Shown here: one piece after another, positions 22,501 through 51,946 of the stretch
Position numbering within the stretch: the first letter of the stretch is position 1
How the letters are laid out: each line of letters starts with the position of its first letter
The notes under the pieces: generated by a model
What the model was told of the DNA's origin: nothing
The model's input: the letters and a program-made list of their open reading frames with translations, nothing else
The model's database searches: none
Source of the DNA: Sweltsa coloradensis
Lineage: Eukaryota > Arthropoda > Insecta > Plecoptera > Chloroperlidae
Assembly: GCA_024449915.1 (NCBI GenBank)
Contig: JAMZAV010001050.1
Location: forward strand, 213,497-277,496
Reading direction: 5' to 3'
DNA: 64,000 nt
Made by a program: the position numbers and the translations under genes

Positions 22501-23664
22501 AGTGGAGAAAGGAGAAAGGATTCCAACAGCTTAGGGCCTACCTACAATAATTTTCAGATAAGCTGGTGAAATCTTTTCCCCACTCATTCACTAATTTAAG
22601 TGTAAATTTGACATGTTATAATTTCAATTTGGAAGATGATTTCTTCTTTATATTTGCATTACTTTGGTGTTTTATCTTGTGGATACTAAATATAAAACTT
22701 AATTACTATTCTCTGTACGAGTTTTGTTCAGATCGACAAAAGTCACGATACAAATTGCACCACCCATCTTTGAAAGTCTCCAGGCACCGGAAACTTGCAT
22801 TAAACAGTTACGGGACGGTAGAGATTTACCTATTTGCATCGATACCATTGCAGTGTGAAGCTAGCATACGTACGTGGTGTGTGGGCAGGGTTGTGCGATG
22901 TGAAGCTAGCATACGTACGTGGTGTGTGGGCAGGGTTGAGCGGTGTGAAGCTAGCATACGTACGTGGTGTGTGGGCAGGGTTGAGCGGATGAGAAGCTAG
23001 CATACGTACGGGGTGTGTGGGCAGGGTTGAGCGGTGTGAAGCTAGCATACGTACGTGGTGTGTGGGCTGGGTTGAGCGGTGTGAAGCTAGCATACGTACG
23101 TGGTGTGTGGGCTGGGTTGAGCGGTGTGAAGCTAGCATACGTACGTGGTGTGTGGGCAGGGTTGAGCGGTGTGAAGCTAGCATACGTACGTGGTGTGTAG
23201 GCTGGGTTGAGCGGTGTGAAGCTAGCATACGTACGTGGTGTGTGGGCAGGGTTGAGCGGTGTGAAGCTAGCATACGTACGTGGTGTGTAGGCAGGGTTGA
23301 GCGGTGTGAAGCTAGCATACGTACGTGGTGTGTGGGCAGGGTTGAGCAATGCACTGCAGGCCTTCGCCTTGAACACCCCCAGCAGTATCCACACGTACTC
23401 GATACAGTTGGTGGTGATTATAGCCACAACGTCACCGGAAGTCACCGGACTGTGGCGGTTCATAAGCGCCGAGCACAGTTGGTCACTGTTGTCGTGAAGT
23501 TGCTTGAATGTAAGAGTTGTGCCCGTCTCGGCGTCGATCTGCAATCAGTCCAGAGGAAGGAAGCGTTACAACATTTTATCTTGACACAACTCATAGTACC
23601 GGTCGGTATCTGATAGAATATTGAGGTGCAGGCTGCAACCTGAACTTTACTCTTACACATATAT

Positions 23665-23696
<32 letters not shown>

Positions 23697-25402
23697 TTCG
23701 AGTTTCGTTTTAACATCACAGATGTATGAAACATGTCATGAACATAATATAGGCAACTAGGCCTAAAAATTATTACAGAACTATTCCTAATACATACATA
23801 CACAAATAATAAATACATACACAACACACATAATACATAATTTCATAGCTATACATGGAGTCTGAAATCAATTTAAAATTTAAAATACAAGCTTGGCTTA
23901 CTGGTTAAAATATACATGTTTGAACTTGTGTTCCTGTACATAATCATCAACTTGATAATATGCTTTCCCAATTAGGTAATTTTTAAGTGAGCTTTTAAAT
24001 TTATCTATGTCTGCAATTTCTTTTATGTTGCTTAGATAAATTTAAAAGCTCACTTCACACAGTATTATCTTCTTTTGTATTCGTAGAGTTACGTTATTGT
24101 ACCCACCTTCTGGCAACCGCCCACTGTTCCAGTGCCCTCTCCATCTCAGTAGGAACTAACATCTAGAGACCAGAGCCCTTACAAATTGCAACAACAACAA
24201 AACTCAAGGAAATTATATTTCTTGGGATGAGCATGAATTATCAATTTTCTATGTGTAGAGAAATATTCAAAATGGTAACGTTATTTTAAATTACAAAAGT
24301 ATATGTTTGTCAGGGCACCTAACAAATACCTATTAATTTAAATGATTTTTATATTTAATTAGCCACCTTTTGCCATCTGTAACAGTATAGAAGGGTTGCT
24401 ACTGAACCAAGATCTTGCAATTATTTGAGTGGTATTTTTTCTTCACGGTTATAATAATTTAGTGTGGATAGTTACACACTTGATATAGACTTGGTCGCTG
24501 CTTTTAACTCTTTCACCTTTGGTATCTAATACAATGTTTTATAATTTTTTTTTTAAACTTGAGAATGTAAAATGGTTGCCATTTTTTTGGTTTTTGTTTT
24601 CTTAGTAGTGACTAGTGCACTTGAAATTGAAAGTTGGAGCATAACTTTGGAATTTTGACCCTGATAAAAAATGTCATGAGGTAATATTGTAGAGGAATAA
24701 AATTTCCAAGACAAAGAAATTTATTTCACAATCAATAGTTCAAAATTTTGACTTTATGATTCAAATTTACCCAACCCATTTGAATAATTTACATTCCCTA
24801 CCACAAAAGTAGCCAAAAATCAAGATGATTTTTCCTACAGTTTTTTTTTTTATAAAATAGGTTTTGTCTTTTGTGGTGTATTTTTTAATTCTCAAAGTTT
24901 TTCCAAAATACTCAAATTTAAAATATATATATATATTGGATAGAGATTCAAAATAGATACGTTACTTCAAATAAATCTCTAATTTCAAAATTTCTAGGCC
25001 TAAAATTTAAAAAAAGTAGTAGGCTTACTTTACGAGTTACCACTTCAGTAACTGCCCGACTTATACGTCCATATCACACAGCGTGGACCTATTAGATTCG
25101 TTCCAATTATTAACAAACTTGACATTTTATTTACGATAACACTGGATATGAATTTAGACCTTTTTTAATTGTATATTATAAATTCATGGTTAAATGTTAT
25201 TTCTTGTGTCTATTATTTTGTAATTTCTTATTCAACTAGTTTTCACTCGACATTCTGTTCTCGTGAGCTGGTGGGATACCCATAGACACTAACTAACCTG
25301 AGCAACTCGGTCGCCGTAGCCCCTAGTTTTCTTGGTGATGTACTCGCATAGCAGCTCAGTCTCGTCGAAGTATAGAGCAGGTCCCGTCTGACAACTCTGC
25401 AT
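16390..25402 (-). CDS. ANL-superfamily acyl-CoA ligase (luciferase / 4-coumarate-CoA ligase-like), paralogue A
   Basis: Coding exons in transcript order: 25402-25298, 23538-23325, 22329-21978, 20715-20553, 18800-18528, 17895-17668, 17359-17194, 16505-16390; 1617 nt, 538 aa, all phases compatible. The family activates a carboxylate as an acyl-AMP and usually transfers it to CoA; the natural substrate cannot be told from sequence. Motifs: [11 protein letters not shown] (residues about 199-209), SHAYG (about 241-245, the firefly-luciferase His245 position), SYGMTE (about 336-341), [12 protein letters not shown] with the ribose-binding Asp at about 419, [10 protein letters not shown] hinge, and PKTGNGK with the adenylation Lys at about 526. 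Length and motif spacing match firefly luciferase closely. It ends KDMYNM, so no PTS1. The start ATG at 25402 is inferred by comparison with paralogue B; the exon stays open five prime to 25434. No defect is seen. Confidence 0.92.
16510..17190. other. Last intron of ligase A, no element recognised
   Basis: AT-rich sequence between the last two ligase A exons; no repeat family or conserved coding block was seen. Confidence 0.5.
17194..17359 (-). CDS. Ligase A coding exon 7 (C-terminal domain)
   Basis: Acceptor TGTCTTCAG, donor GCAG/GTGCGC, 166 nt. It encodes [20 protein letters not shown] and [13 protein letters not shown], the start of the mobile C-terminal domain. Paralogue B exon 8 is also 166 nt with the same phase. 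Confidence 0.92.
17668..17895 (-). CDS. Ligase A coding exon 6 (ribose-binding Asp and hinge)
   Basis: 228 nt, 76 codons, with acceptor GTATCAG and donor CAG/GTGAGA. It encodes [37 protein letters not shown] and [13 protein letters not shown]. Length equals paralogue B exon 7 exactly. The hinge between the large and small domains falls at DRLKE. Confidence 0.93.
18528..18800 (-). CDS. Ligase A coding exon 5 (YGMTE motif), undivided
   Basis: Acceptor TGTTACAG, donor GTG/GTAGGG; 273 nt, 91 codons. It encodes [30 protein letters not shown] and SYGMTETTF. Paralogue B encodes the same span as 135 + 138 nt with an intron between; the sum is exactly 273. Confidence 0.93.
19041..19941. repeat. MITE with ACCGTATTTACTCGA ends and nested palindrome
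   Basis: Ends ACCGTATTTACTCGA and its inverted counterpart, flanked by AATTT (19036-19040 and 19942-19946). The inside holds a second inverted repeat: gaattcggaaaatgtg from 19268 against its complement ending at 19440, arms about 63 nt with a GC-rich spacer. A second, short element with the same ends lies at 57838-58024. It is in ligase A intron 4. Confidence 0.7.
20553..20715 (-). CDS. Ligase A coding exon 4 (HAYG motif)
   Basis: Acceptor TTTCCAG, donor AAG/GTAAAA; 54 codons with [13 protein letters not shown] and [11 protein letters not shown]. The His of HAYG occupies the luciferase His245 position. This exon is the intact reference that exposes the extra base in paralogue B exon 4. Confidence 0.92.
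20753..20955 (-). repeat. Dispersed repeat, pair with 7630-7875
   Basis: Starts ggagccgtcctaacaacgag only 38 bp upstream (transcript sense) of ligase A exon 4 and ends near cccactgaaaatcagttat. It is an inverted match to 7630-7875. It lies in an intron. Confidence 0.5.
21766..21837 (+). tRNA. tRNA-like sequence, probably pseudogene or SINE head
   Basis: Cloverleaf parts are recognisable: D arm GCTC/GAGC with agttggtaa loop, T arm CCGGG-TTTGATC-CCCGG, and an acceptor stem GTCTTCA/TGGAAGC with one mismatch. The anticodon stem has a mismatch and position 33 is C rather than T, so a working tRNA is doubtful. It lies in ligase A intron 3. Confidence 0.45.
21978..22329 (-). CDS. Ligase A coding exon 3 (P-loop motif)
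   Basis: Acceptor ATGTTGCAG, donor GG/GTAAGA. It encodes [17 protein letters not shown] and, near the end, [19 protein letters not shown], the AMP-binding signature. A second AG at the frame-compatible TGTCGCAG would drop 11 conserved codons, so the upstream acceptor is preferred. Confidence 0.92.
22850..23350 (-). repeat. 45-bp minisatellite made of 11 copies of an exon-intron junction
   Basis: The word ctagcatacgtacg recurs at 22861, 22906, 22951, 22997, 23042, 23087, 23132, 23177, 23222, 23267 and 23312: 45-bp steps except one of 46. On the - strand each unit holds the last 22 nt of ligase A exon 2 (from CTCAACCC), the donor GTACGT and 17 more intron bases. Units differ by point changes (gggcagg/gggctgg/taggc), so the array is not a simple assembly stutter. 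It lies directly downstream of the exon 2 donor. Confidence 0.95.
23325..23538 (-). CDS. Ligase A coding exon 2, ending at the first of 11 tandem donors
   Basis: Acceptor TGATTGCAG, then [14 protein letters not shown] and [11 protein letters not shown] to [20 protein letters not shown]. The donor at 23324 reads C/GTACGT; the single leftover base C joins GG of the next exon to give Arg-Glu, the same RE pair as in paralogue B and firefly luciferase. Ten more copies of this junction follow downstream in the 45-bp array. Confidence 0.9.
23655..24035 (-). mobile_element. Non-LTR retrotransposon 3' end in ligase A intron
   Basis: On the - strand it encodes [20 protein letters not shown] and [10 protein letters not shown], the typical 'FKxxLKxYL ... 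fYsvxEfl' tail of reverse-transcriptase ORFs. It ends in an (ATTT)n run (plus-strand 23659-23693), the expected 3' tail. A hairpin (gcttttaaatttatcta at 23987 and complement near 24050) overlaps its left side. Confidence 0.6.
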
Positions 25403-35105: not shown

Positions 35106-35249
35106 GATAACGGTGGTGACTTTGTTTGAGTCATGAGCTTGAGCAGGAACGTACTGAGTGGGCCGGCGGAGCGGCAACCGGCACCTAACATTTCCCTTGG
35201 AACGTACATGCTGAGAAACATGAGCAGTCACGGCAATAAATTAGCCCAG
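35106..35249 (+). CDS. Ligase B coding exon 1 (start codon)
   Basis: The acceptor is cttgttttag; 27 nt of 5' UTR precede ATG at 35133-35135, so a noncoding exon upstream is implied. Thirty-nine codons encode [15 protein letters not shown] and [18 protein letters not shown], typical of the N-terminus of this family. Donor CAG/GTAATT, phase 0. Confidence 0.88.
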
Positions 35250-38200
35250 GTAATTAGGCTAAAGGCCCAATGATGATGTCTTGTTTAAAGGGGCTATTAG
35301 CCCCAATTATTTTTACCCACATAATCTATAGGCCTAGCATAATTCTACACTAAAATGACTGTTTAAAAAATTGTATCATGTAGGGCCTAGAACTGTTATT
35401 TTACACAAAGTTTTTTGATCCTGAAATTTGCACAAATGGTCCTTTTGGGAAATTTCTCGGCTTTAACCTGCAAATTTTTTGTTCCACTTAGATAAGTCTG
35501 GCTAGAGCAAATTTACCAATCTAAAACGGCCCTTTACAACATCGTGTCTTGAAACTGGGAATAATTATGCACTCAAACACACATAAATATGCATTCCAAA
35601 ATCACAACCTTGGTAATCAGCATATTTGACCAAACCATTCGTCCAAATTACAAAATAAAATACATCAGTTTTACAGAAAAGGCTATCGAGTGCATCAATA
35701 TTGGCCCAATATTATTTTGGATCAAAATCCTCAATGGTCACGGGGCATCAAGATCGTCCCCATGTTGTTTCTTATTGGAGATTTTTGCCGATGGAACCCA
35801 GCAAAATTTACCAAGTTTGGCAAAAAAATTAAGGACATTGTGGGCACAATAATTTTTTATTGCTTTCTAAATTCATAACGAGTTACCCTTCAGTTCAGAA
35901 TGAAATATATTTTTTCAGTTTATCGGGTGAATAGGCCTAGGCCTACCCCTTTATTAACCACTAGGTCCTATTTTTGTTGGGGGAGTTGAAGGTGATCAAG
36001 TCATGGTACGAGATAAGGGATGCGGCATGCCCTGGCTAATATGTGTGACGTATGAGTACTAAATGTGTCTTTAGACTCAAGTTCCCACAGGATGTAAATA
36101 CCCCTTGTTCCCAAATTCCTCTGATTTGTTTTGCCCATTTAAAGATGTATTCACTATTCTTTACTTTAAAGCAAGATAATGCCATAAATGTATTGTAACC
36201 ATGGACCATGTGACCAATCAGCATGGTAAATCAGTGTAGGGCCTAACTCAACATGAAACTCGGTAGGGCCCAGTCAACACCGACAGCTAGGCCTATTAAA
36301 TGTTACCTTGCCCGGTGCCCGCTATTGGACGTTGACGCTTAGCGGGTATCAAGTGTTAAATTTTTGTACTACATATTTAATGTCTCAAAGCTGTAGCCTA
36401 CATGTTGAGCCCCTTGTTCGCAGGTTCACAGCGTGACTGGCGAGACGGCCACTTACGAGGAGATACTGGTAAAGAGCCTGAGCACGGCAGAGTGGCTTAG
36501 AGCGCGGGGCGTCAAGAGCGGAGACGTGGTCGGAATCTGCAGTGAAAACAACCTCGAGTTCTGCCTTCCGATGCTCGCCGCGTCGTTTGTCGGTGCCACC
36601 TGTGCCACATTCAGTCCGGTCTACACAAAACGTTAGTACCTGTGCAACATTCAGTCCGGTCTACACAAAAACGTTAGTAGGTGCCACCTGTGCAACATTC
36701 AGTCCGGTCTACACAAAAACGTTAGTAGGTGCCACCTGTCACACATTTAGTACGGTCTACTCAAAACGTTAGTAGGTGCCACCTGTGCAACATTCAGTCA
36801 GGTCTACACAAAACGTTAGTAGGTGCCACCTGTGCAACATTCAGTCAGGTCTACACAAACGTTAGTAGGTGCCACCTGTGCAACATTCAGTCTGGTCTAC
36901 ACAAACGTTAGTAGGTGCCACCTGTGCAACATTCAGTCTGGTCTACACAAAACATTGCCACCTGTGCAACATTCAGTTCGGTCTACACAAAACGTTAGTA
37001 GGATCAGAAACTTGCGGAATGTTTTGCAAGCATATAGTCAAGCGGATTAAAGGAAAATACAAGAACAATTAGGGGTTTTGTGGTAGAGGGCTGAATTTTG
37101 GACTGTATACTCAGAACAACATTATAAGAAAATTGCCTCGAGGAGCCATGAAAAAATGCCATCCGGTTAAGGGGGTGGAAGTGGGTGAAAAAAGGGCATT
37201 TTTCAAGTATAAAAAAATTCAAAAATCAAACTAAATTTGATCCTAAGATTACAAAATTATTACATATTGTAGATAAAAGTCCAAATTTAATAAAAAAAAT
37301 ATATATCACCATACATGTATATATAACCAGATTTTGACAACTTTGTCTTTTTTTCACAAATTTATCCACTCTGCTGGGAGGATTAGCCTACCAGTTACGG
37401 GTTAAGTGATAGGGCCGTGAATTTTGTCTAAAACAATCAGAAGAATGATCTCAAAAAATTGCCCGAGGAGCCCTCAAAAAAGGTTGCTTGCTTATAGGAG
37501 AAAGGGGGGGTGTACTAAAAGGGGTTGATAAAACTAAAATAAAGAAATCCGGTATTCAAATATTATATTTACAACGCCATATTAATGTGTATTGTAGATT
37601 AAGGTCTAAACTTTAATTTAAAAAATTAAAATTTCACCATATATGTAAATCTGGTCAGATTATGCGCCCTTTTCCCATTTTCATAAATTTCCTCAATATT
37701 ACGAAAGTGTATCGTGCGACCACTCTTTTTGTCACAAATTCTCCTAATATTACGAATTAGGACGAAAACAAGATTTTGTGATGCTTTGGGTACATTTTTA
37801 CTCAATGGACTTTGATCTCATTTTAACAAATTCACTCAATTTTAACGAAAGTGTATCGTGTGACCACTCGATTTGTTCAAAATTATGCCTATTATAAGAA
37901 AAATTATAAAAAGTATGTATGCCTTAGGTAAGTTTTACTCAATGGACTTTGCCCCATTTTAAAAGTATGTATGACAAAGTGTATGACAAAATCTTATTTT
38001 CGTCCTAATTCGTATTATTAGGATAATTTGAGACAAAACGAGTCATCACATAGTTTCTTAATATTGATAAATTTTAAAAGGGGAAACCATTGAGTAAACT
38101 GTACCTAAGGTGTTAAAAAAACTTTTTTTATCCTTTTTCTTACTATTGGCATAATTTTGAACAAAACGAGTGGTCACACGATACACTTTCGTTAAAATTG

Positions 38201-41200
38201 AGTGAATTTGTTAAAATGAGATCAAAGTCCATTGAGTAAAAATGTACCCAAAGCATCACAAAATTTTGTTTTCGTCCTAATTCGTAATATTAGGAGAATT
38301 TGTGACAAAAAGAGTGGTCGCACGATACACTTTCGTAATATTGAGGAAATTTATGAAAATGGGGAAAAGGGCGCATAATCTGATCAGATTTACATATATG
38401 GTGAAATTTTAATTTTTTAAATTAAAGTTTAGACCTTAATCTACAATACACATTAATATGGCGTTGTAAATATAATATTTGAATACGGATTTCTTTATTT
38501 TAGTTTTATCAACCCCTTTTAGTACACCCCCTCTTTCTCCTTTAAGCAAGCAACTTTTTTGAGGGCTCCTCGGGCCAATTTTTGAGATCATTCTCTGAGT
38601 GTTTTAGACAAAATTCACAGCCCTAGAGCACTTAACCCGTAACTGATAGGCTAATCCTCCCAGCACAGTGGGTAAATTTGTGAAAAAAAGACAAAGGGTG
38701 CAAAATCTGGTTATATATACATATATGGTGATATATATTTTTTTTATTAAAATTTGGACTTTTATCTACAATATGTAATAATTTTGTAATCTTAGGATCA
38801 AATTTAGTTTGATTTTTGATTTTTTTTATATTTGAAAAATGCCATTTTTTCACCCCCTTCCACCTCCTTAACCGGATGGATTTTTTTCATGGCTCCTCGA
38901 GGCAATTTTCTTATAATGTTGTCCTGAGTATACAGTCCAAATTCAGCCCTCTACCACAAAACCCCTAATTGTTAGGCTAATCCGCCTAGCTAATAGGGAA
39001 GTTACAGAGTAGGCCTATCTTAACAATATGATACTTTCACCCTAACTGGCTCGACTCGGAACTCTAGTTACTGCGCGGAGCAGTTTGTTTTTTATGTTTC
39101 CTCCTGGGGCTTAGAATCAGTATCTACATTTTTAATTCATGAGAAACGATTGGTCTACCTAGTAGCCACAATCAACTATGAAACGTAATTCATTAGATAG
39201 ATATAGGGCTGGGTCCAAGCTAGTTCAACTAACTACTACTTGCAGCGCTAGCGTCGTATCAAGGCCGTGTCGGTACAAATATTGAAAAATGGCGTAGAAA
39301 TGTTTACATTTGAGCCAGACACGGCGTTGTGGCATCATGAAGAGGAACAGTCATCTGCTGAACACCTCGACCCTGACCAAAAACCTCAACATCCCGCGGG
39401 TAACATTCAAGCGTCCCCCAACATCCAGGACTTGTTGGTTAAACGCAACCCCCGGAACAGGACCGACACACCCCAAGTAGCCCTACCACCTGGCTCCTAC
39501 CCCTGTGACAGCGCTCGCTGTAAAACATGCCAACTCAATCTACCCACCGAGTCGTTTACAGCGAGAGCCACGGACAGAACATACGCCATCCAGGGACACA
39601 ACACATGCCAAAGCACCAACGTCATTTATCAGTTGAGGTGCAGTAGATGCCCAGCTGAATATATAAGCCTTACTACCAACGCCTCAACACACGAATGAAT
39701 GGCCATAGACACAATACCAAGGCAGGCAACATTGAAAAACCAGTGGCCCTACATGCTGCATCTCACAACCTGCCCTTTCAACAAATGCTACCAGGCCAGT
39801 GTTGTGAGAGCCCTACCTGCCCACTGCAATGAACATGAATTGAGGAGGTGGGAGCTGGCTCACCAGTGGATTACCAACTCGAGGCTTCTCCCTAACCTCA
39901 ACATCCGTTAGGGTGTACTCCACTGCTCCCCCCCCCTCCTAGTTCTCCTGCACTCCACCCCCACCCAACAGCGCCACTGGCGTGACTTGTAAATAACTGT
40001 ATATATCTGTACAAACCTAGTTTAGTTAACTCTCCGCTCTCGTCGAGTGAGCAAGGCCCTGTTTGGCCGAAACAGTTTCGACGTTTTCTTGTATTATGTT
40101 TATTTATTTGTGTCTTTCTTCTACGAGACCCTGCAGTCACCGACCAGGTAAGCTGTTGGGTTCCCTTTCCACACCCTACTTAACATTAATGTCTACTAAA
40201 GAAATTTTAACAGAAGACGATGTCCAGAGGCCAAATTGGACATCTGCAACTTACACTCGTGCAGTAGTAATGTGCAACTGAAGAGGTGGCTGAAATGTCG
40301 GCTGCAAGCTAAGGCTGGCGCGCCCACAGCTGACGTTGTATTTTGCTCATGCTTGACGTGAAAGTCGATGTCAGTAAAATTGTTTTATCTTTGTCACTGT
40401 CACTATAAAATTGCCGCAATCACAGTGTGAAAGGCCGACTAATGATTCGTTCAATAATAAGAAGCCTGGCCGGCCTAGCCTATAGGCTAGGACTAGGCGG
40501 GGTACCGACGAGACTGGGGCCTACAGAAGGGGAAATGTCATGTCCTGCGATTGTGATAACGAGTGTAGTGTTAGCCTGTAAAAGTACTTTTAACTTTCGG
40601 CTCTAAATTATGTGATAAGCGAGGCCTAGCCTAGGTTACATATTTTGATTGTGTTTTTCATGGGCTAGGTCTAGGACAAGGCCTGGGCTCATAGTCAGAC
40701 TAGCAAACAAAGCCTACAAACTCGCGGTAGGCCTAGGCCTAGGCCTATAGCTAGCTGGGCTTGGCCGTAGGCCTACTTCAGGGTTTTTATTGCAAATGTA
40801 TTGTATTTGTATAGGATTATTGTTTCAACGTTTTGCACAAGGTGCCCAGCCTGGAATAAAGTTGTGGCATTCAAATACCTAGCTAGAAAAAGCCCCTACA
40901 CGTATTGATAAAACACTAGGGCTAGGCCTAGGGAAGACCTAGATCAACCAAATAGGTCGCAAAACCTATGGCTTAGGTCCTATGGCTGCATGAGGGACTT
41001 AATTTCAAGCAGAAAGTCAAAATTACTGCTAACACTACACTCGGAAGGCCTATCACAATCGCAGGACATGACATGACAGACAGATGACTGTAGGCCTAGG
41101 CCGCGGCCAGGCGTAATTACATTTTATTGATGAACGATTAGTCAGCCTTTCAGACTGCGATTGCGGCAATTTTATAGTGACACGGACATAGATAAAACAA

Positions 41201-44200
41201 ACTATTGTTTTGATATTACTATCATCTCCAACATAATCACGGACGTAATGATATATCGACTTTCACGTCATATGGAGGCAAGTTGACAGATGTCTGCCTC
41301 ACAACTTCGGCAGTTATGCAGTTGATTTCGCCCGACTTAACTTCCGTCACGTCTAACACATGACCTGCTTTGGCCAGTGCCAATCCTTTTTTAAAACAAT
41401 TAGGTGCATTGAAGCCCGCACGCACACTTTTAAATCCATATTTTTTATGATTATATCGGGACGCTCGGACATAGGGCCTACCATCCATCGTTGACACTTG
41501 GCTAGATCCACTGTTGGTTTGGGTAAGGAAATAAAAAATACGCCGGCCATATGGGGCCTATCTTTGTACCTGGAGTCTGAGTTAAATAATCCATAACAAC
41601 AAGCCCATGATTATCGCCAACAGCGGAGTAAACAAAAGCGTTGTTCGCCTGTCCACCACTAGTGCTACACTGTTTTACACGTGCACTGAGCAGTGTACGG
41701 CGGAAGTACTTCTTTTTAAAGGAAACAGTAGGGTTTGTCAGTGTAGCCCGAGTGTTGCCACACAAAAAAACACACGCAACACTTTTAGTGTTGTTTCCTC
41801 CTACACGACCAAAATAGCCAGTGTAATCTAGTGTAGCACTGGCAGCACTAGTGCTACACTGAAGGTACAGAAAAACGACCACATACAAACTACACTGACT
41901 TACACTGACACAAAAAAACAGCCATTCGTCTACACTGACTTACACTAGTGTAAAGTGTTGGACAGGCAAACAAAGCTAAAGTGAATAAAATGTGACAGAA
42001 CGTCTCTTCAAACGGTTAGTCATATGGGAGCTGTCACCTGTAGCCCGAAAGTTTGTACTGACGCACGCGCTGCCATCTCTCGAGCAAACATTAAATTAAA
42101 GTGATGACGTCAATTGGAACCAGCCCTATACTGTATAGTGTATGGCTAGAGATGTGCAAATATGTTTTTTTAAAGTTTAAAAATTTGCGCATTAAAAAAA
42201 AATCGCGCATTTCGTTCTCATCATTTTTGCACATTTCTACGTATGGCTAAAGCGGCCGTTTTACTGGAGTGTGTAATGTAAACTGAAGAAGTATTTTCTA
42301 AATCATATTTAAAACAACACATTGTTAACGAAGCAACATGTCTTGTACTAGCCTATTCAATTACGTATCTATTTTTCAATAGAAAATGAAGTTAAATGAC
42401 TATAGACTAATAGACGACCGATAGAATCGAATATGAATATTTATAGGGTTCAAATTTTTACATTTTGATGACAGTCATTTTATATTGTATTTATTACCCT
42501 TCTTTGTGGCCAGACTTAGTGTTTGGCCCATGTACATGTATCGTATAGACCTTGAATGGGTTCGGTGTAACAGCTATCCAAGGCAGTTCACTTATCATCA
42601 ACTCAAGTCCCCGTCTCATGCGTCCGACTGTCTGTCACTTGTAGGAGAACTCAAGTCCCCATCTCATGCGTCCGACTGTCTGTCACTTGTAGGAGAACTC
42701 AAGTCCCCATCTCATGCGTCCGACTGTCTGTCACTTGTAGGAGAACTGCTGCACTCGCTAAACATCTCGAAGCCGTGCATTGTGTTTTGTTCGCCCCTCA
42801 CCGCCGCCAGAATGGGCGAGGTTGCTCGAGAACTCGGCTACATCCGTGACATCGTGGTGTTTGGCTCGGGTTCCGCCCACCCTCACATCGCGATGTCCTC
42901 GTTGCTGAGAAACAAGACACCCCCTCGCAAGTCATTCGACGAGGGATCCGACAAGGTGGCCGTTCTTCTCTGCTCCAGCGGGACGACTGGTCTGCCCAAG
43001 GGAGTGATGCTGACAGACAAGAACATCCTGACGTGCCTGGCACATTTGAAGTGAGTAGTGAACCTGATGTACACTAGCCTGCACCAGTGCACACAAGTAG
43101 ACCTAAGGTTAGGTTCTTTTTCCATGGAAACAAGATGATATGGTTTTAGAATTATTAATTTTGACTTTGAAGCCAGTCAGGCCTATACCGTACCTACTTT
43201 TTACAAACAATCTGCCTATTTATTGTTAATTTATGTTTAATTTTGTATTTATTATATGTATATGTATAATATTGGGTCCAAAAAGTTCAAACCGGTTCCT
43301 ACACGTCGGAACCGGTTCGGAACCGGTTTTTTGAAGATCAATTTTTGTGTAATGTATCAGCCTTACGTGCGTGTTTTTTGGAAGCGACTGTACGGTCAGG
43401 AGTGAGCTGGCTTCAGCGCCCGCGCTTTGTTACGTACGACTGCCGACAGTCAAGTGTCATGTAGCAGCCTCGTGCATCAAGGCCGGTCGAGTGCTTGATG
43501 ATCGGCAAGCGAGGAAGGATAAGGTAGCCAGCTGCGTCATCACGGGCTCCGTGGAAATAGACCGCACGGTGCATAGAATTACCATTTGTGCGGAAAAACA
43601 AGTCCGTGAAGTTCACCGTTTTACAGTATAACTTGAAAAAAAAATTAAACCGGTTTGAAAAGTCAGAACCGGGTCGCTATAGAACCGGTTTCCGGGTACC
43701 CAATGTTGATCACTATTTAGTATTTTGTATGTGTCTTGTCATATCTCATCCGCTAACCTTTCCGATCGGCTGTTCCTCTTGTAACCTGTTACCTCCAAGT
43801 GCAAAGATTGAAATCCGTGTTTTCCTCTCCTAACAGGGACCCAAGTTTTGGAGCTCTGTCTGCGGGCGAGGTGTACATGGGAATCCTGCCGTTCTTCCAT
43901 GCGTATGGCTACATCATCCAGCTCTCCACTCTCTCCCTCGGGAATGACCACCATCGTCATGCCCAAGTTTGAGGAGGAACTGTTTCTCAGGACCATTCAA
44001 AACCACAAGGTGCAATACTAGCAACAACGTCTTGGACTAAACTGGCAGCCTTGGATGCGCTGCCTGTAATTCTTCATGGACAAGATTTCAAAATATATTT
44101 ACTGGCCATTGATACACGTATTCAATTTAAGATTCTTTGTGTGGCACATGTCATGGCAAATCATTCGATCAGTGTAGGTCTAGGCCAGCATGTGCCATCA

Positions 44201-47200
44201 ACAAATTAAAAAAAGGCCACTCAATTGTTATTGGAGCCCCAGTTAGTTAAAGGGGCCGCTGTCTTATATATAGCACTGGCAGTGGCTATAAAGATCACTG
44301 TACTTAGAATCTCATATAGTCCTAATAGTTTTTGATTTCTCTATTAGGCTACCGTATACGTATAGGGTTGCTAACCGGCCATTTCTTTCGTTGTCAGAGT
44401 AGGTGTAAAGTGTGTAAAACCAAACAATTTTGATCTTTAGGCCTCCACTGTATTCAATTTTGTTTTTTTAATTTATGATGAACCCTTGACCCCTTCCTCT
44501 TACAGTAAATAAACTTATTATTATGGAGATACCTTAATTGCTGAAACTTAACATGTTCTGTAAAATACTGTACCCGTAGGCCCTATAGAAAAAATAGGTC
44601 AGTGCAAATGCGGGTATTCGATTAATTCGAATCTAATATAAAATATTTTCAAATCAAAAGTTTGAGCAAGGGCCTACCTATTGAATAAGGCAGATCTTCA
44701 AATCATTGTTGTTTACATTTGTTAACACAATATTCTTAAATAATATTGCTGGTTGACCATTGGTTGTTTGTAGCCGCTTCTAAGAAACAAGTTTGGAACA
44801 AAGTGGGCAGACTCTAAATACAAATGTATTTACCGATGCTTTGTTAACTGTCCCCAGGTGACCCTGCTGTTCCTGGTGCCTCCGCTCCTTGTCTTCCTGG
44901 GTAAACACCCTCTGGTCGACAGCTACGATCTCACTAGTATCAACTGTATCTGGTGTGGAGCGGCGCCACTACGTGAGGAGGTCCAGTCTCAGGTATGTGT
45001 GTGTCTAGGGTGGCTCCTTGTCTTCCTGGTAAACACCCTCCGGTCGACAGCTACGATCTCAACTAGTATCAACTGTATCTGGTGTGGATAGGGATTTAAA
45101 AGGTACCAATTTTCCGGAAATTTTGGAAAAAAACCGTGTTTTTTTCCGTTTTTTTTCCGGGCACGTCGGAAAAATAGGAAAAATTGGAAAAAATGAAAAA
45201 ATTGGTTTTAAGGTGCATAGGATAAATAAAATTGATATGAATGTAGTAATGATTATTTTTATCAATAAGGTAGCCCAATTACATATCTCACAGTTTTTAA
45301 TTCATTATTTTAATAGTAAAATGAAAGGTAAATGCCTTAGTTGTTCTTGTTAGGTTAGACTAAAATTATGATTGGAATTCTCATTTCAAAGACAGTTTTG
45401 TGACCATATTGAAAAGTAATAGGGCATGCCGTGGGAGGGACTAAAGCTTAACATAGTATATCTATAAACAGGAGTCAAATTAATGCTCGCCCGAGGCTAG
45501 TGAAACTTTGCTCGCGCTAGTAAAATCTAATTACTCTAGTCCGACAGGCGAGTACTTTTTCCAGAGTTCCCAATTGCCGTTCAAAAAATCTCAATTTTTC
45601 GCAACAATAACTTAACGAGTTTCCAGTAGTAGTGCACTACCTAGTATGGAAAATTGTTGTAAATATGCAAACAAAATAAAAAATCGCTTAATTTAGGATT
45701 ATTAATATTATGGTTAAAATTCGTTCCGGTTGCTCCTAGTCCCCCCTACACATAAGTCAAACCCGGCAAATATGTGATTAAAACATTCACAATACCCTAT
45801 TATTGTTTTACATCAATATAACCTATTTGATTGCCGACTGTAAAAATGCTCTTGGGCTAGAGGACTATTGTTGCCATTAACCGAAGTGCTAGTTGCAAAA
45901 AAAGTTAATTTCGACCCCTGGCTATAGGCCTAAATAGTAATAATTGCAAGGGATTTTGGAAATGCTAGATGTAGTATTGCTGCCATTTGCTGTCATTTAT
46001 AAACATCAAAGTAAACACGCGTACGTAAACACATGAAAATAAACTAACAATTAATAATCTTAATTTATAATTTACCATAAAGATGCCATTAATCTAAAAT
46101 GAACTACGAGGAAGTATTAAACTTTATGAAAAGTAAAGAAAATTCAATTTTTCCAATTTTTCCAATTTTTCCGGAAAAAAACGGGAAAATATCCGTTTTT
46201 TTCCTCGACTTCAATTTTTCCGGAAAATTTCGAACCCTAGGTGTGGAGCGGCGCCACTACGTGAGGAGGTCCAGTCTCAGGTATGTGTGTGTCACCGGCT
46301 TTCATTGCCCTTACAATGTTTAATAGCTTCCTCCACTAACGTTTCCCATATCATATTAGATTGCTACATATTAAATGGTTGCAACATACCTGCCAACTTG
46401 TACAATTTGGTCGTACAACGTACGAATTTCGATGGTTTTGTACGATTGTACTATTCACCATCGAAATTGTACGATTTTTTCAGTTTTTGTATTTGCCTCA
46501 CAGTTTTTAGGCTAATTCACCGGTTTATTTTATGCGCTAATCGATGCAGTCTATCCCGCGGAGCCTGCCCGCTGGCTTAAGAGTTACACGAGTCGGCAAC
46601 AGAGCGCGTTGTAAGCTGACACGTGCTTCCGTCCGTCTGTGCGCCCAGCGATGGTAGTGCCCATGCCTACGAGTGAGTGCAAGAGAGATAGATGCGGTGA
46701 TATATCTCGAGCGCAGTCATGCATTGCGCGAACTAGGTGCGCGTTCGGTGCAACCAACTTACACAGCTCAACTGACCAGTATGTGTGGAACAAAGATGGT
46801 AGTATATAACCGTCGGTGTGGAAGAAGAATTTCGTTGCGACCATGTTTCAACCGATTTACGAAATTTCGTAATCATGACGCATTGGATTGTTATTCCTGG
46901 GCTGATCTTTCTTTCCCAGGCTTATTTTGCGACAGAGCTTCAGCGCGGGCGATAGTAGTTAAAGATTTTCTCACATGCATGCGTGCTTTCCCCTGCTTTC
47001 TGGGCGTAGGCCTACGCCTAAGCCATGTATGACGAGTTACATGAAGATCATTGCCTGGTTATGAACGCGATTCTTTATTTGTGCAAGATTACATAGGCAC
47101 TGGTGAGTGGTGAGTCTATTCATTATTTAGCCCTATACTACCAACAATGCCTGGGAACAAACAAACAAACACTTAACTAACTAACTACTCCAACTAATGA

Positions 47201-50200
47201 TGACATGAAGTGATCTAAGTAGGCCTCTAAATTATCTAAAACCTACCAAATTGAATCTAAGGGCAAAAAAATTCGGGGGGCAAGTCCCCCCCCCCGGATC
47301 CACCAAAATGATCCCTTCCGCACATATTGGCTTTTTGGGACCAGTATTTATTCCTTTAAGTATTGTATGATTTTTCATATTTGTAGGTTGGCAGGTATGT
47401 TGCAATCAACAGTGTAGGTTCAACGTATGCCAGCCCCAACTATACAGTAGTCAAATGAATTCAGAACTTTTCATTATTACTTTACTTATTAGGTAGGCTA
47501 CTGTTACTTTGTTACCTTGCATTTATTTTATGTCTTAATGTTGAAATCAAAGTTGTACGAGTTTTGGGTTATTTTGTTTTGTCTCGAGTAAACTTTCACT
47601 TGCCGGTACTTCGAGGTTTTGTTACCACTGTGGATAACATATTCGTGAGAACTGAGGCTGATGATTTATTATTAGTTATTTTATGTTTCCTGTCAGTTTA
47701 CGTAGTCTTATGCGTATTTCCACCGGGACACCACACCAGTGTCTGATTGGAGCATTCTTCCTGGGTCCTGCGCTGTCTGGCCTAGTCACTGCGCTGTGAC
47801 CTACTTGATGATAGGGTCACACTGACCGGGTAGTTCTGTGCATCCCACCCCTCCGGTGTTGTCACAAACACTAGTGTCCGTCTCAAGTGTCCCAGTTTGT
47901 AACAGTCCTTAGATACAAAGACAATCATAACTATTCCCCAACAGTTAGACGGATCATTACAACTATTATTTAAAAACCTTTGATAGTAGGCTACCGGTAC
48001 CTATGTTACATACATTCAGGCAGTCTTGGGGAGAAACGCGTTCCTAGTAACGCGTTCCTTTTTCAGGAACTTTTGTGGGAACGCGTTTCTTTTCTTAGAT
48101 CAGGAACTTGTAACGTCAAAGTTACTATTTTGTGGGAACTTGGAACGAATTTAACGTTCTTTTATAACTTCCTTTCGCCGTTGTAATCCTGTCGAACTCC
48201 AGTACCTGATATCGAAAACTGCAGTATAAAAAATATTTTGTGACATCTTGTGTTTTCGAAAATGGTGCCACCCTCGTCAGATGGCCTGGGACTCACTTTA
48301 ATAAATAAAAGTAATGATAAATTAACTTCTGTCACATTTATTATTATTTAAATCAGTGATTGTATAAGGAACGTGAGAGGAACTGAGTTCGTTTTTGAAG
48401 AGCGAGGAACGTTTCAGTTCCTTTTTAGGCAGAAGTAACTCAACTTTTCAAAGTTCCTTTTTGGGGAGAACGAGCCCAAGACTGCATTCAGGCATACATG
48501 GGCTATGAATGCCTACATACAGTAAAATGTTATGTGTTGGTTCCTTTCAGGTTACCAAGAGGCTAGGTCTGAAACACATCCGCCAAGGGTACGGGATGAC
48601 GGAAACCACGCTAGCAGTGCTGCTAACCCCGCCAGACTGGAACAAGCACGGCTCGTCAGGACAGCTGGCTCCGGGGACGTACTGCAAGGTGAGTGAACCC
48701 GCCACGGACACTGAACAAATGGCTGCTCTGTCCGTACTTAGTGCAGTGCGCATTTAACACTACCTGACCTCGTAGCGGTTGAGAACTGCAAGTGCACTCC
48801 ATGTCGAATACGCTACTAGAGGCGGTGGACTCAGTTACAAGAACAGATTTACAGTAAAACTTATATTTAAGTGGCTCCATTGATTCAATTATCGATTGAC
48901 GTACAAATCGTTGATAACTATCGATCGGTAGTCGATTGCATATGTCCGAACCCAAGGGACCGAGCCACAACTGTGGTCTACATGGTGCATCGATACAGAC
49001 TTATTAGTTTTGTTGTTGTAGGTGGTAGACCTGGAGACGGACAAGCCTGTGGGCCCCTACGTGAGCGGGGAGTTGTGTTTCAAGGGGCCCCTGATTATGA
49101 AGGGCTACTGCGGTGACCTCCAGGCGACCTCTGCATGCACGGACCAAGATGGCTTCCTACACACCGGGGACATCGGCTACTACGACAGAGACGGCTTCTT
49201 CTTCATAGTCGACCGACTCAAGGAACTCATCAAATACAAGGGATTTCAGGTGGAGACGATGTTACATATTTTGTTTATATAATAGAATAGGGCATGCTGT
49301 CATATAAACCATTCCTTAGCACAGAGTATCTTACACATTTATATCTGCAGCTGTAATAATTAGTCTCTCAGAGATATCCATAAGGTCCCCTCTTTCTTTC
49401 CTTGCAAACTTCTCCTAGTCTTCTGCCTTCTCTTTGTTGACCGTTCTTTGTGCTTCCCTATTTGCATTTTTGGAAGCATCTTTCTTAGCTCATCTGATCT
49501 GTCTTTCGTGTATTCCCTGCATGTTCTGTACCTGGCCATCCCACTAAAGTCCGTCCACCCTTGAGGTACAATGTTACCAGTGACTGCCAAGACAGGTATT
49601 GGTCGCCCCCGTCCATTGTCTGCCTGCTGCTAAACTTTTCATTCGCAACCCTTCTCGGGGTTTAGCGGTTGGTACCTGATACAGGGTGACCAGTGGCCAG
49701 GAGTGAATTTCGGGACACTCTTCCAGGTGAAAACAGCAGGGGGGGTTTGGGGGGCTCGCCCCCCAACAACAGCGCCGCAGGCGAATTTTTTTTAAATCAG
49801 GGTTTTTGGAGTGATTTCTGAGCGTTTCAGAAAAAATATCGAACTGAATTTAATACTGAAATACTGTCGTTTGTGTAGTCAAAAACCAAAAAACCTAAAT
49901 GAAATCGAACGCTGGCGAAAATTATTAGGTATTGAGTTTTGGGGCTTGGAAAGTTGGGAGTAAGTAAGGGATTTTTTTTACAAGATATAAATTCAATAAC
50001 AGTTTATTACAAAATAAACTCAATATAATTAAATGTTAAATAATCATGATCATTATAATAATAAAGGTAACATCGAAGTAAAGAAACTCTTAAAATATTT
50101 TGAAATACAATTTCGTAAAACTTCAATTATTCATTCATTCATCACATCACATCATATCACAATTAAACATATTTTTAGAGCTTTTTACTTTTTCAGCACA

Positions 50201-51946
50201 TCTTCTCGGGAAAGAGTAAAGTTATAAAACTCTTGGCACGTGAATTATAAGTTTAAGCTCAAGTTTTATTTCATTGCCAATTAACTCTGGCAAGCCTCGA
50301 TTTCGAGAATCAGTCCATTTGTTCTTCATTAGCGAAAATGCCCTTACTAAATAAGCATTAGAAACGGGAATGCTAAGGACAAAATGAAACTAGCTGCTTT
50401 GGGGGACCATCCGCTGCAGCTACTACTTGACGCTGATTGAAATATCTTCAGCCATTTCTTGTCCGGACTTTCTTTACTTGATATAAGTTCTATAAATTGC
50501 TTTTTTGTTTTTATTTTCTAGTTGAAATTTCTAATTTTCTAAGTTTTTGAAAAGCAAATAAAATAAAATTGTGAATTTACCGATTTCGGGACAAAAGGCG
50601 TCCCGAAACAAATCGGGACTGTCCCGCAACAATTGCGTCAAATTCGGGACTGTCCCGCATTTTTCGGGACGTCTGGTCACCCTAACCTGATACCTGTGTC
50701 GTCCGTCGATAGTTAGCTTGTTACCATCTGTTGTCTTGCCCGACAGATCTTCTATGTTGCCTGCACCACTAATAACAATACTAATACTAAGTGCTCCCCA
50801 CTCTTCCTCCGTACTCTTGTCTCACTGGTGTCTATGATAGGGTGCATTCAGCTTGTTCTCAGTGTACTCACTTCTCTTAGGTATACTTCATTCTATTTGG
50901 ATATTGTATTCACTAACATATTTTAATAACCTATGGTCCCCATCTAGCCTAGTCCCACACTTGTGATGACTTTAGCCTTCTTCTTTGCTCCCACATTATC
51001 TACTTGTGTTCCCCATTTCAACTATACCTTACAATTCTGTGGCTATACCTTTTCTGGAACTTTTTCCGTACCCATTGTATTGATCCCACTTCCCTGCTGC
51101 AAGTGTGTGACAGAAGAGGGACCGCAGTGATGCCAACATATTACTTGTATTATATTCAGCCGATGTCCTGTAGGTCCCCCCTGCTGAACTGGAGGCGATC
51201 TTGTTATCCCATCCTGGAATCAAGGACTCTGCGGTGATCGGCATTGCTGATGAAAAAGCGGGTGAACTTCCGCTGGCGTTTGTTATAAAGCAGCCCGGGG
51301 CCAGCATCACCAAGCAAGAAGTTATCAAATACGTAGAGGGTAGGAACACATTTACTACTTTCCTTGCTTACACGTTGTAGAGCTTTTTTCACTCTTGTAG
51401 GTAGCCCTATAGTTAAATTACTGTGACAAGGATGCATTAGAAGAATGTCTGGCCTTGTGCTCTTAAAGTGACAAATATAGACTTGATTGATGTAATTACG
51501 TATATTGGTTTCTTTCTTGATTTGGTTAGTCGGGAAACACTCCCGTAGGTGGAATTGTTATATTTAATACAATTCAAAGTTAAAAAATCCATCCCTTGGG
51601 GTTCGATCCTACCTGGAATGTGGAAGACGGGTTCGAACCCTGATCAAGATGGATTTTTTAACTTCTGAATTGTATTAAATATTAATTGTATTGGTGTTTC
51701 CATAATGGAATCTAACATCGCAAGCACTCATCTCTTAACCATAACGCAAGGTTTCATAGATACACCAAGCTACCAGTGGAGGTGTAAGTAGATTACAAAG
51801 TCGTAATTGTTGTTTTTCTAGGCCAAGTTTCGCCTCACAAAAGATTACACGGCGGTGTGAGGTTTGTGGACTCGATTCCTAAAACTGCGAGTGGGAAAAT
51901 ACTAAGAAGAGAGTTACGGGCCAGTATGTTGAAGGCCAAGCTGTAA
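35133..51946 (+). CDS. ANL-superfamily acyl-CoA ligase (luciferase / 4-coumarate-CoA ligase-like), paralogue B, with a one-base frameshift
   Basis: Coding exons: 35133-35249, 36424-36631, 42741-43050, 43837-44009, 44858-44992, 48551-48688, 49022-49249, 51174-51339, 51822-51946. The product is 532 aa if one extra base in exon 4 is discounted. Motifs: [10 protein letters not shown] (residues about 187-196), FHAYG (His about 233), GYGMTETT (about 327), [11 protein letters not shown] (Asp about 410), [12 protein letters not shown] and PKTASGK (Lys about 517). It ends LKAKL; AKL is a recognised PTS1 variant, so a peroxisomal location is inferred. Similarity to firefly luciferase is strong at [12 protein letters not shown] and KFEEELFLR, but luciferase and fatty-acyl/coumaroyl ligase activities cannot be separated by sequence. 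As it stands, translation would hit TGA soon after the frameshift in exon 4. Introns are long and full of transposons. The gene lies head-to-head with paralogue A. Confidence 0.9.
35289..35952. repeat. MITE-like dispersed repeat (copy 2 of 2161-2817)
   Basis: Same orientation and order of blocks as copy 1 (aaaatgaccgttta/aaaatgactgttta, ccctttacaacatc, ttgaaact). TTAA precedes it at 35285-35288. It lies in ligase B intron 1. Confidence 0.6.
36424..36631 (+). CDS. Ligase B coding exon 2, ending at the first of about 9 repeated donors
   Basis: Acceptor ttgttcgcag. It encodes [30 protein letters not shown] and [10 protein letters not shown]. The leftover C joins GA of exon 3 to give [11 protein letters not shown]. 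The donor C/GTTAGT is followed by tandem copies of the exon end plus donor. Reading through gives an immediate TAG, so only this first donor keeps the frame. Confidence 0.92.
36590..37005 (+). repeat. 46-48-bp minisatellite made of about 9 copies of an exon-intron junction
   Basis: Copies of the end of ligase B exon 2 (gtgccacctgtgcaac ... gtctacacaaaac) plus the donor gttagtag follow one another. Donor positions are 36632, 36673, 36721, 36768, 36815, 36861, 36907, one lacking the donor near 36953, and 36994. The second copy is shortened, and point differences distinguish units. Confidence 0.93.
37041..38987. repeat. Foldback element of about 1.95 kb, nearly a full palindrome
   Basis: The left arm from agcggatta (37041) and gaacaattaggggttttg matches, in inverse order, the right arm ending caaaacccctaattg ... 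taatccgcc at 38987. Arms run close to the centre at about 38000. Internal shorter repeats (gtatcgtgcgaccactc and relatives) occur. No ORF of note. It lies in ligase B intron 2. Confidence 0.85.
39250..40190 (+). mobile_element. Penelope-like element fragment with GIY-YIG-type C-terminal region (copy 1)
   Basis: Frame 39267-39698 encodes [18 protein letters not shown] and [20 protein letters not shown], the Cys-rich and 'nvIYxxxCxxCxxxYiGxT' blocks typical of the nuclease part of Penelope-like ORFs. It then shifts to the frame 39699-39911. A near-identical copy is at 58430-59300 (-). The 3' end matches 545-648. It is broken and 5'-truncated, in ligase B intron 2. Confidence 0.7.
40347..41275. 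repeat. Inverted-repeat element of about 930 bp
   Basis: The left arm (gacgtgaaagtcgat ... attgccgcaatcac, 40347-40445) is repeated inversely at 41150-41275 (gcgattgcggcaatttt ... atcgactttcacgtc). The middle is rich in TAGGCCTA words. It lies in ligase B intron 2. Confidence 0.65.
41237..41497 (-). pseudogene. Unidentified protein-like fragment
   Basis: An 86-codon open frame on the - strand with [20 protein letters not shown] and [13 protein letters not shown], reminiscent of transposon-associated zinc-finger proteins with a 'GHV' motif. It overlaps the right arm of the 40347-41275 element. I do not recognise it with certainty; a further open frame lies upstream (41888-41502). Confidence 0.25.
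41643..41972. repeat. MITE with cactagtg-rich inverted ends
   Basis: Left ttcgcctgtccaccactagt and right cactagtgtaaagtg-ttggacaggc are inverted. The interior carries several more gtgtag/ctacac words. No target duplication could be fixed. Confidence 0.55.
42147..42239. repeat. Very short hAT-type MITE (93 bp)
   Basis: Ends TAGAGATGTGCAAAT and ATTTTTGCACATTTCTA, with flanks tgtatggc (42139-42146) and cgtatggc (42240-42247), a 7-of-8 matching target duplication. It lies in ligase B intron 2. Confidence 0.65.
42597..42744 (+). repeat. 48-bp triplication of an intron-exon acceptor junction
   Basis: Three copies of ctcaagtcccc-a/g-tctcatgc, gtccgactgtctgtcacttgtag and gagaa follow in 48-bp steps, so AG acceptors end at 42644, 42692 and 42740. 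Copies 2 and 3 are identical; copy 1 differs at one base. All three acceptors are in the same frame without stops between them. Confidence 0.95.
42741..43050 (+). CDS. Ligase B coding exon 3 (P-loop), preceded by three tandem acceptors
   Basis: The acceptor used here is tcacttgtag at 42731-42740; identical acceptors lie 48 and 96 nt upstream. It encodes [18 protein letters not shown] and [19 protein letters not shown]. Donor AA/GTGAGT. Use of an upstream acceptor would add 16 or 32 residues in frame. Confidence 0.92.
43270..43707. repeat. Inverted-repeat element with aaccggtt-rich ends
   Basis: Left ttgggtccaaaaagttcaaa with ggaaccggttcggaaccgg, and right gaaccggtttccgggtaccc. A TTGGGT.CC terminal inverted repeat is visible. 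No target duplication is evident. It lies in ligase B intron 3. Confidence 0.5.
43837..44009 (+). CDS. Ligase B coding exon 4 with one-base insertion
   Basis: Acceptor tcctaacag. It encodes [35 protein letters not shown], then the frame breaks at 43943-43944 (gggAAtg): one extra A. After it the +1 frame reads [20 protein letters not shown] to the donor AAG/GTGCAA, which is itself weak. Without the extra base the exon is 172 nt and phases agree with exon 5; the segment then has exactly the same residue count as paralogue A. Confidence 0.88.
44858..44992 (+). CDS. Ligase B coding exon 5
   Basis: Acceptor actgtccccag, 45 codons, donor CAG/GTATGT. It encodes [19 protein letters not shown] and [16 protein letters not shown]. 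Most of this exon plus its donor is duplicated immediately downstream. Confidence 0.92.
45003..45088 (+). repeat. Partial duplicate of ligase B exon 5, left part
   Basis: Copies exon bases from gctccttgtcttcctgg onward, 129 bp downstream of the original, with small indels (one g lost, one a gained). It is interrupted at ggtgtgga by the element at 45089-46239. The copy resumes at 46240-46295 and includes the donor caggtatgtgtgtgtc. Confidence 0.9.
45089..46239. repeat. hAT-type element with 8-bp target duplication, inside the exon duplicate
   Basis: Ends TAGGGATTTAAAA and TTCGAACCCTA are imperfect inverted repeats with ttttccggaaa just inside both ends. Target duplication GGTGTGGA (45081-45088 and 46240-46247) is exon-derived sequence. 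1151 bp, no transposase recognised. Confidence 0.85.
46385..47399. repeat. DNA transposon derivative with CATACCTGCCAAC ends
   Basis: Inverted ends CATACCTGCCAACTTGTA and the complement ending at 47399, flanked by TTGCAA on both sides (46379-46384, 47400-47405). About 1.0 kb, no intact transposase recognised. It lies in ligase B intron 5. Confidence 0.7.
48021..48484. repeat. hAT-type MITE with 8-bp target duplication
   Basis: Ends CAGTCTTGGGGAGAA and GAACGAGCCCAAGACTG, flanked by CATTCAGG (48013-48020 and 48485-48492). The interior holds ggaacgcgttcc-type palindromes. It lies 66 bp before ligase B exon 6. Confidence 0.85.
48551..48688 (+). CDS. Ligase B coding exon 6 (YGMTE motif)
   Basis: Acceptor gttcctttcag, 46 codons, donor AAG/GTGAGT. 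It encodes [20 protein letters not shown] and [10 protein letters not shown]. The Glu of GMTE contacts adenine/AMP in the family. Confidence 0.93.
49022..49249 (+). CDS. Ligase B coding exon 7 (ribose-binding Asp and hinge)
   Basis: Acceptor gttgttgtag, 76 codons, donor CAG/GTGGAG. It encodes [35 protein letters not shown] and [16 protein letters not shown]. It is 228 nt, exactly as in paralogue A exon 6. Confidence 0.94.
49683..50684. repeat. DNA transposon derivative with AGGGTGACCAG ends
   Basis: Ends AGGGTGACCAG and CTGGTCACCCT are inverted, flanked by ACCTGATAC (49674-49682 and 50685-50693). Subterminal gggactgtcccg words are visible on the right. About 1.0 kb, no transposase recognised. 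It lies in ligase B intron 7. Confidence 0.8.
51174..51339 (+). CDS. Ligase B coding exon 8 (C-terminal domain)
   Basis: Acceptor gatgtcctgtag, donor GAGG/GTAGGA, 166 nt as in paralogue A. It encodes [20 protein letters not shown] and [20 protein letters not shown]. Confidence 0.93.
51505..51690 (+). repeat. Short inverted-repeat element with B-box-like sequence
   Basis: Left tttaatacaattcaaagtta and right aacttctgaattgtattaaa are inverted, with gacgggttcgaaccctg between. Related to 25715-25880. It lies in the last ligase B intron. Confidence 0.5.
51822..51946 (+). CDS. Ligase B last exon with catalytic Lys and -AKL terminus
   Basis: Acceptor ttgtttttctag. It encodes [29 protein letters not shown] and ends SMLKAKL then TAA at 51944-51946. 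The terminal AKL fits the PTS1 consensus [SAC]-[KRH]-[LM]. Confidence 0.94.

What the first reader, a model, noticed from the sequence alone, without database searches (positions are those of the whole stretch)
36590..42745. Both splice sites of one ligase intron are tandemly multiplied, and the paralogue multiplied the same junction independently
Seen: in ligase B the donor of intron 2 is repeated about 9 times (46-48-bp unit) and the acceptor of the same intron three times (48-bp unit). In ligase A the homologous donor is repeated 11 times (45-bp unit). Both donor units combine exon end plus intron start but use different boundaries: 22 exon and 23 intron nt in A, about 37 exon and about 10 intron nt in B. 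Inference: separate births at one homologous exon-intron border, pointing to a local process (replication slippage, R-loop or repair-linked duplication at splice junctions) or to selection for redundant splice sites. I know of no described system like this in ANL ligase genes.
Basis: partly seen in the sequence, partly recalled or inferred. Interest (0 to 1): 0.85.

Follow-up and report, generated by a model that had tools for sequence, protein, structure and literature searches.

The report
Repeatedly multiplied splice sites in insect ligases
In an insect genome, several related enzyme genes have each separately gained extra copies of the same intron start signal; the repeats look real and independent, and are probably tolerated mutations of a kind already known in a human gene, with an unproven hint that they occur where the signal is weak.

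Summary
Ligase A (minus strand, complete 538-aa AMP-binding enzyme) carries 11 copies of its intron-2 donor (45-bp unit). Ligase B (plus strand) carries 9 copies of the homologous donor (8 keep GT; mostly 46-48 bp) and three of the acceptor (48 bp). Both introns split the same Arg codon in phase 1. Unit boundaries differ, and copies are 90-99% alike while A and B proteins are 41% identical, so births were separate. Also: B's intron-5 donor is duplicated, and two more paralogues in the same genome (contigs C5051, C1658) have duplicated the same intron-2 donor with other units: 4 of 18 genes. But this genome is rich in local repeats (7-9% of random points), so the excess over chance is only suggestive; without A and B it is 2 of 16. 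Multiplied donors are weaker than the others by U1 pairing (p=0.003, post hoc; 0.057 if one donor is read differently). A close precedent exists: human CBS has a 31-bp VNTR across an exon-intron boundary and a duplicated intron-exon junction. Most likely: ordinary tandem duplication, tolerated because an outer site still gives the normal mRNA. Selection for redundant donors stays open.

The parts
16391..25402 (-). Ligase A coding span, 8 coding exons (25402-25298, 23538-23325, 22329-21978, 20715-20553, 18800-18528, 17895-17668, 17359-17194, 16505-16391), intact 538 aa
   Evidence: Pfam AMP-binding 2e-71 and AMP-binding_C 1.1e-17
22853..23347 (-). Array A: 11 tandem copies of exon-2 end plus intron-2 donor GTACGT, 45-bp unit
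35133..51946 (+). Ligase B coding span, 9 coding exons (35133-35249, 36424-36631, 42741-43050, 43837-44009, 44858-44992, 48551-48688, 49022-49249, 51174-51339, 51822-51946); frame lost by +1 in exon 4
   Evidence: AMP-binding in the N-terminal part scanned
36592..37002 (+). Array B donor: 9 copies of exon-2 end plus donor GTTAGT (8 intact)
42600..42747 (+). Array B acceptor: 3 copies of intron-2 end plus first 3-7 nt of exon 3, 48-bp unit, open in the exon frame
44884..45005 (+). Exon-5 end plus intron-5 donor of B, source of a further tandem duplication
45013..46293 (+). Second copy of the intron-5 donor segment (45013-45088 and 46240-46293), split by an insertion of 1151 bp with 8-bp target repeat GGTGTGGA

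Best explanation
These are young minisatellites and short duplications that happened to take in a splice site. Each began with a tandem duplication between short matching stretches on the two sides of the junction (read by eye: AACT for the B acceptor, GG for the B donor, TGC with one mismatch for A), then grew by slippage or unequal exchange. They survive because an outer copy still gives the normal mRNA: the first donor in B, the first donor (or, in frame, any of the first eight) in A, any of three acceptors in B. Shown: the copies, their boundaries, homology of the intron, frame consequences, presence in other paralogues. Inferred: birth mechanism, tolerance, which copies are spliced. The weak donor at this Arg codon (C at -1), either through looser constraint or through a gain from extra donors, may explain why this junction recurs.
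For: Different boundaries and units: 45 bp (A), 47 bp (B), 83-bp core at +150 (C), 183-bp core at +371 (E). Within-gene copies 90-100% alike, A and B proteins 41% identical and each closer to its own insect relatives (A-Anabrus 54%, B-Schistocerca 59%). The neighbouring 100 kb gives 22 TRF rows with unit of 25 bp or more, some overlapping, and 50 of 700 random points there lie in local copies. Isoform table: A donors 1-8 of 11 keep the full frame (538 to 643 aa), donors 9-11 stop early; B donor 1 is open to the end of exon 3 with all three acceptors, the other seven GT donors meet a stop after residue 109. C's duplication appears on two contigs, so it is not one assembly slip.
Against: More of the window's direct-repeat families cover a splice site than random placement gives (0.0001 to 0.002 according to which families are counted; post hoc). 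The multiplied donors are the weak ones. Donor hexamers are kept in 11 of 11 (A) and 8 of 9 (B) copies, though few changes occurred at all. No RNA data.
Confidence: 0.6

Rival explanations
1. Donor multiplication is compensation. The intron lies inside an Arg codon, so the last exon base must be C (or A) and U1 pairing is poor; tandem copies raise the chance that U1 binds somewhere and are kept by selection.
For: Of 18 homologous intron-2 donors, the four multiplied ones (U1 duplex -1.5 to -3.5) are weaker than the 14 others (-3.4 to -11.5), p=0.003; recalled weight matrix p=0.011; C at -1 in 3 of 4 against 1 of 14, p=0.019. Within A and B these two donors have the weakest U1 pairing of 15.
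Against: Post hoc, related genes. With gene E dropped and twins merged p=0.007; with E's other possible donor p=0.057. By the weight matrix A2 and B2 rank only 3 and 1 of 15. L014, L016, L017, L022, L023 lack G at -1 and are single. B's intron-5 donor is strong (-10.2) yet duplicated, B's weak intron-4 donor is not. In B the added donors lead to early stops; so, read by eye, does C's. In human CBS more repeats go with lower activity.
Confidence: 0.2
2. A junction hot spot: a local process (transcription-linked or repair-linked) duplicates DNA at this exon-intron border more often than elsewhere.
For: 4 of 18 genes with donor-spanning copies at the same homologous border, 0 of 21 loci at the intron-1 acceptor of the same exon; Fisher p=0.052 when taken as 18 against 18.
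Against: Against a 7-9% random background P(4 or more of 18) is 0.03-0.07; without the discovery pair 2 of 16, P 0.31-0.43. GC skew is wrong for R-loops.
Confidence: 0.13
3. Decay: B and perhaps C are degenerating genes in which anything is tolerated.
For: B has a +1 shift in exon 4; C's exon 3 match contains a stop and gaps.
Against: A is intact. The other modelled exons of B are open. Contig C4711 shows many single-base losses against C5051 (read by eye), so the shift may be an assembly error.
Confidence: 0.15
4. One ancestral array inherited by the paralogues.
For: Same homologous intron.
Against: Different units and boundaries, young copies against old paralogues; 14 of 18 genes have no donor-spanning copy.
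Confidence: 0.03
5. Assembly artefact.
For: Noisy second contig for C.
Against: Copies carry distinct substitutions and unequal spacings; a whole-genome search returned array A at one place only; C's duplication is on two contigs.
Confidence: 0.03

Closest known systems
Human CBS 31-bp VNTR, c.1444_1467+7(16_21), exon 13/intron 13 boundary
   Same: Tandem 31-bp unit; the notation reads as 24 exon and 7 intron nt, 16-21 copies, so the donor region itself is multiplied (PMC2630376, passages; boundary and lower activity with more repeats, PMC5188458 passage; PMC1395315 passage)
   Different: One human gene, not the homologous border of several paralogues; different gene family
Human CBS 844_845ins68
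   Same: Duplicated intron 7/exon 8 junction; the splicing machinery strongly favours the more distal of the two sites (PMC2630376, passage), comparable to B's repeated acceptor
   Different: Two copies only, 68 bp, polymorphic
Intron gain by tandem duplication (potato RdRp, ATP2A1, fission yeast 24-bp AGGT arrays)
   Same: Tandem duplication supplies extra splice sites, in potato across an intron-exon boundary (PMC4974935, abstract and passages)
   Different: There a new intron appears; here an existing intron keeps its place
Dual-specific splice sites in tandem repeats (UBC, VCX3A)
   Same: Splice sites repeated once per tandem unit, stochastic use (PMC10809524, abstract and passages)
   Different: There one AGGT serves as both donor and acceptor in coding repeats

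Membership tests
VNTR spanning a splice site (CBS type) | Tandem unit contains both exon end and intron start | tested here: met
VNTR spanning a splice site (CBS type) | Copy number varies between individuals | not testable with these tools
   one assembly; array A returned once
VNTR spanning a splice site (CBS type) | Copies offer usable donors | not testable with these tools
   only sequence: 11 of 11 GT in A, 8 of 9 in B
Intron gain by tandem duplication | Intron absent in the paralogue without the duplication | tested here: not met
   read by eye, intron 2 lies at the same place in the loci without duplication
Dual-specific splice site array | Intron embedded in the repeat, its length a multiple of the unit | tested here: not met
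   intron 2 is 995 nt in A and 6109 nt in B and runs beyond the arrays
ANL superfamily acyl-CoA ligase / luciferase-like | AMP-binding and AMP-binding_C domains | tested here: met
   A: both above cut-off; of B only the N-terminal 247 aa were scanned, AMP-binding

The most novel reading that the evidence does not exclude
Donor multiplication is a recurrent, selected repair of weak donors: where a conserved codon forces a poor last exon base, gene after gene has independently built an array of donors (45 bp x 11, 47 bp x 9, 83-bp core x 2, 183-bp core x 2 with (GTAT)46) that raises U1 capture, and the in-frame array of A also gives a ladder of protein lengths.
Probability: 0.17. Interest if true: 0.8.

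Novelty: new variant of a known kind. Interest (0 to 1): 0.48.

Why it matters
Tandem duplication at splice sites is proposed as a route to new introns and alternative isoforms, but few natural cases are known. Here one homologous junction offers several independent, differently aged cases beside single-copy paralogues in one genome, so that the question whether donor copy number compensates a weak donor can be tested directly with RNA reads or minigenes.

Tried and rejected
R-loop origin by GC skew: wrong sign. The palindromic array at 34784-35040 as a repeated acceptor of B's 5' intron: a better acceptor lies at about 35106, so rejected by eye. Dual-specific (AGGT) reading of the B unit: no second role needed. 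Transcript evidence through proteins: among the best 120 listed for A no relative exceeds 57% identity, so the species itself is probably not in that collection. Of 221 aligned rows (219 of the 231 proteins listed by the two searches, kept by length apart from P0006, plus A and B; the searches themselves found 2387 and 7977) 218 have no insert at the junction, 2 (both Timema) have 37 and 13 aa, 1 lacks the region. In-frame bias as evidence of selection: A and B-acceptor units are multiples of 3 and open, B donor units are not; too few. Variable columns: 1 of 22 in the intron part and 4 of 23 in the exon part of array A, too few to read as constraint. Papers: seven searches on this theme, judged by titles and the starts of abstracts, listed no case of multiplied donors at one border of several paralogues; passages of PMC12783039 (earthworm metallothionein) were seen and are not such a case. 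Lievers 2001 and Gao and Lynch 2009 are not held (known here only through citing papers). Rows dropped before counts: of 24 exon-2 matches, L019, L032 and L034 are second copies of an exon already counted, L033 did not read as this exon (by eye); A was added because that search did not return it. L013/L015, L020/L021, L026/L027 were merged as probable twin contigs for the count of 18. Locus D (L020/L021) has a 22-nt exon piece copied 64 bp downstream without the donor and was counted as not multiplied. The first version of the chance estimate left out seven spaced direct-repeat families; one search puts them back.

Full report
Setting. It holds parts of UTP25 and two luciferase-like ANL ligases head to head. 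Relatives of A over most of its length with the highest identity are Anabrus simplex (54%) and Periplaneta (49%); B's are Schistocerca and Bacillus rossius (58-59%): an insect, probably polyneopteran (inference). A is intact, 538 aa. B is open except for one extra base in exon 4.

The arrays. A: 11 donors in 45-bp steps, one of 46. B: 9 donor copies, 8 with GT, and 3 acceptors in 48-bp steps. A's seven introns have phases 0,1,2,0,0,0,1. B's first three are 0,1,2; after the shift in exon 4 its later phases, read in the downstream frame, are 0,0,0,0,1 (exon lengths 135, 138, 228, 166). So B matches A with one intron more: A's exon 5 (273 nt) equals B's exons 5 plus 6 (135+138). Intron 2 splits an Arg codon in both, so the borders are homologous. 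B's extra intron 5 has its donor duplicated as well, 77 aligned columns at 96% and 54 nt at 100%, the copy split by an insertion.

Consequences. Splicing A at any of the first eight donors keeps the frame and adds 0 to 105 aa; donors 9-11 give early stops. In B only the first of the eight GT donors is open; any of the three acceptors keeps the frame, adding 0, 16 or 32 aa up to the end of exon 3. The border is one where 218 of 221 aligned rows have no insert, so long inserts are unlikely to be the normal product (inference).

Other genes of the same genome. A search with B's exon 2 gave 24 matches, from a capped first look of 30 candidates. Read by eye, the exon ends at the homologous place in the 20 loci kept. 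C (C5051, and a noisier contig C4711) has an 83-bp core (67 exon, 16 intron nt) copied at +150, identical; on C4711 the offset is 144 and the copy 94% alike over 52 nt. E (C1658) has a 183-bp core copied at +371, 98.4%, and its first copy runs straight into (GTAT)46, that is, overlapping GTATGT hexamers. Three of 19 loci pass the detector; with A and B (slightly different settings) this makes 5 of 21 loci, or 4 of 18 genes after merging probable twin contigs. Intron-1 acceptors: 0 of 21 loci (places approximate in some loci).

Is it more than chance? The genome is rich in local repeats: 50 of 700 random points in 100 kb upstream and 63 of 700 in the paralogue loci pass the same detector; such points overstate the birth rate because grown arrays cover more ground. 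With 7-9% background P(4 or more of 18) is 0.03-0.07; with an assumed 3% it is 0.002; for the 16 genes other than A and B, 2 hits give P 0.31-0.43 (0.08 at 3%). Inside the window, 3 of 6 TRF arrays (P 0.0012) or 4 of 14 direct-repeat families (P 0.0018) cover a splice site; introns do hold other local repeats, such as those within the foldback element, and shorter-unit arrays. The window was picked because of A and B, so the recurrence is suggestive only.

Weak donors. By U1 duplex energy the two intron-2 donors of A and B pair worst of 15 in these genes (-3.4, -3.2; next -5.3); by a recalled weight matrix they rank 3 and 1 of those 15. Across 18 homologous donors the multiplied ones are weaker (p=0.003 and 0.011; 0.007 without E and twins merged, 0.057 with E's other donor). 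The position is Arg in 106 of 221 rows, which excludes G at -1. This was noticed after the fact and the genes are related. Against it: B's intron-5 donor is strong and duplicated; five single donors also lack G at -1.

Known kind. The CBS gene has both a VNTR over an exon-intron boundary and a duplicated intron-exon junction (PMC2630376, passages; PMC5188458 and PMC1395315, passages). Thus the kind is known; recurrence at one homologous border of several paralogues, and the tie to weak donors, are what seems new, in so far as the listings of the named paper searches show.

Verdict. Real, independent, probably tolerated duplications; new variant of a known kind. Compensation of weak donors is the reading worth testing.

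Noticed in passing
45089-46239: Insertion of 1151 bp in the copy of B's exon 5, with 8-bp target repeat and TAGGG/CCCTA ends, hAT-like (label recalled).
   Followed up: partly
44858-48688: B has an intron (5) that A lacks: A exon 5 (273 nt) equals B exons 5 plus 6 (135+138); gain in B or loss in A unknown.
   Followed up: no
37097-38941: Nested foldback element (long inverted arms, mostly 87-96% complementary) in B intron 2.
   Followed up: no
39252-39698 and 58919-59338: Two ORFs on opposite strands share nearly the same peptide; looks like a Penelope-type element tail (recalled), no Pfam match for the first.
   Followed up: partly
about 43940: One extra base in B exon 4 breaks the frame; may be an assembly error since another contig of this genome shows many single-base losses.
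   Followed up: partly
L018 (reverse complement) 1687-1870: (GTAT)46 sits at the donor of gene E's first exon-2 copy: a microsatellite made of the donor motif GTATGT.
   Followed up: partly
L020 and L021, about 1650-1760: A 22-nt piece of exon end lies 64 bp downstream in the intron; on L021 the exon matches that piece better (95% against 86%), as if converted by it.
   Followed up: no
34784-35040: Six copies of a unit containing a palindrome (GAACTGTG...CACAGTTC) upstream of B.
   Followed up: no
P0006 and P0134 (Timema): Two predicted stick-insect ligases have inserts of 37 and 13 aa at the intron-2 border.
   Followed up: no
21759-21832: tRNA-Ser(GGA)-like gene inside A's intron 3, perhaps a short retroelement head (inference).
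   Followed up: no
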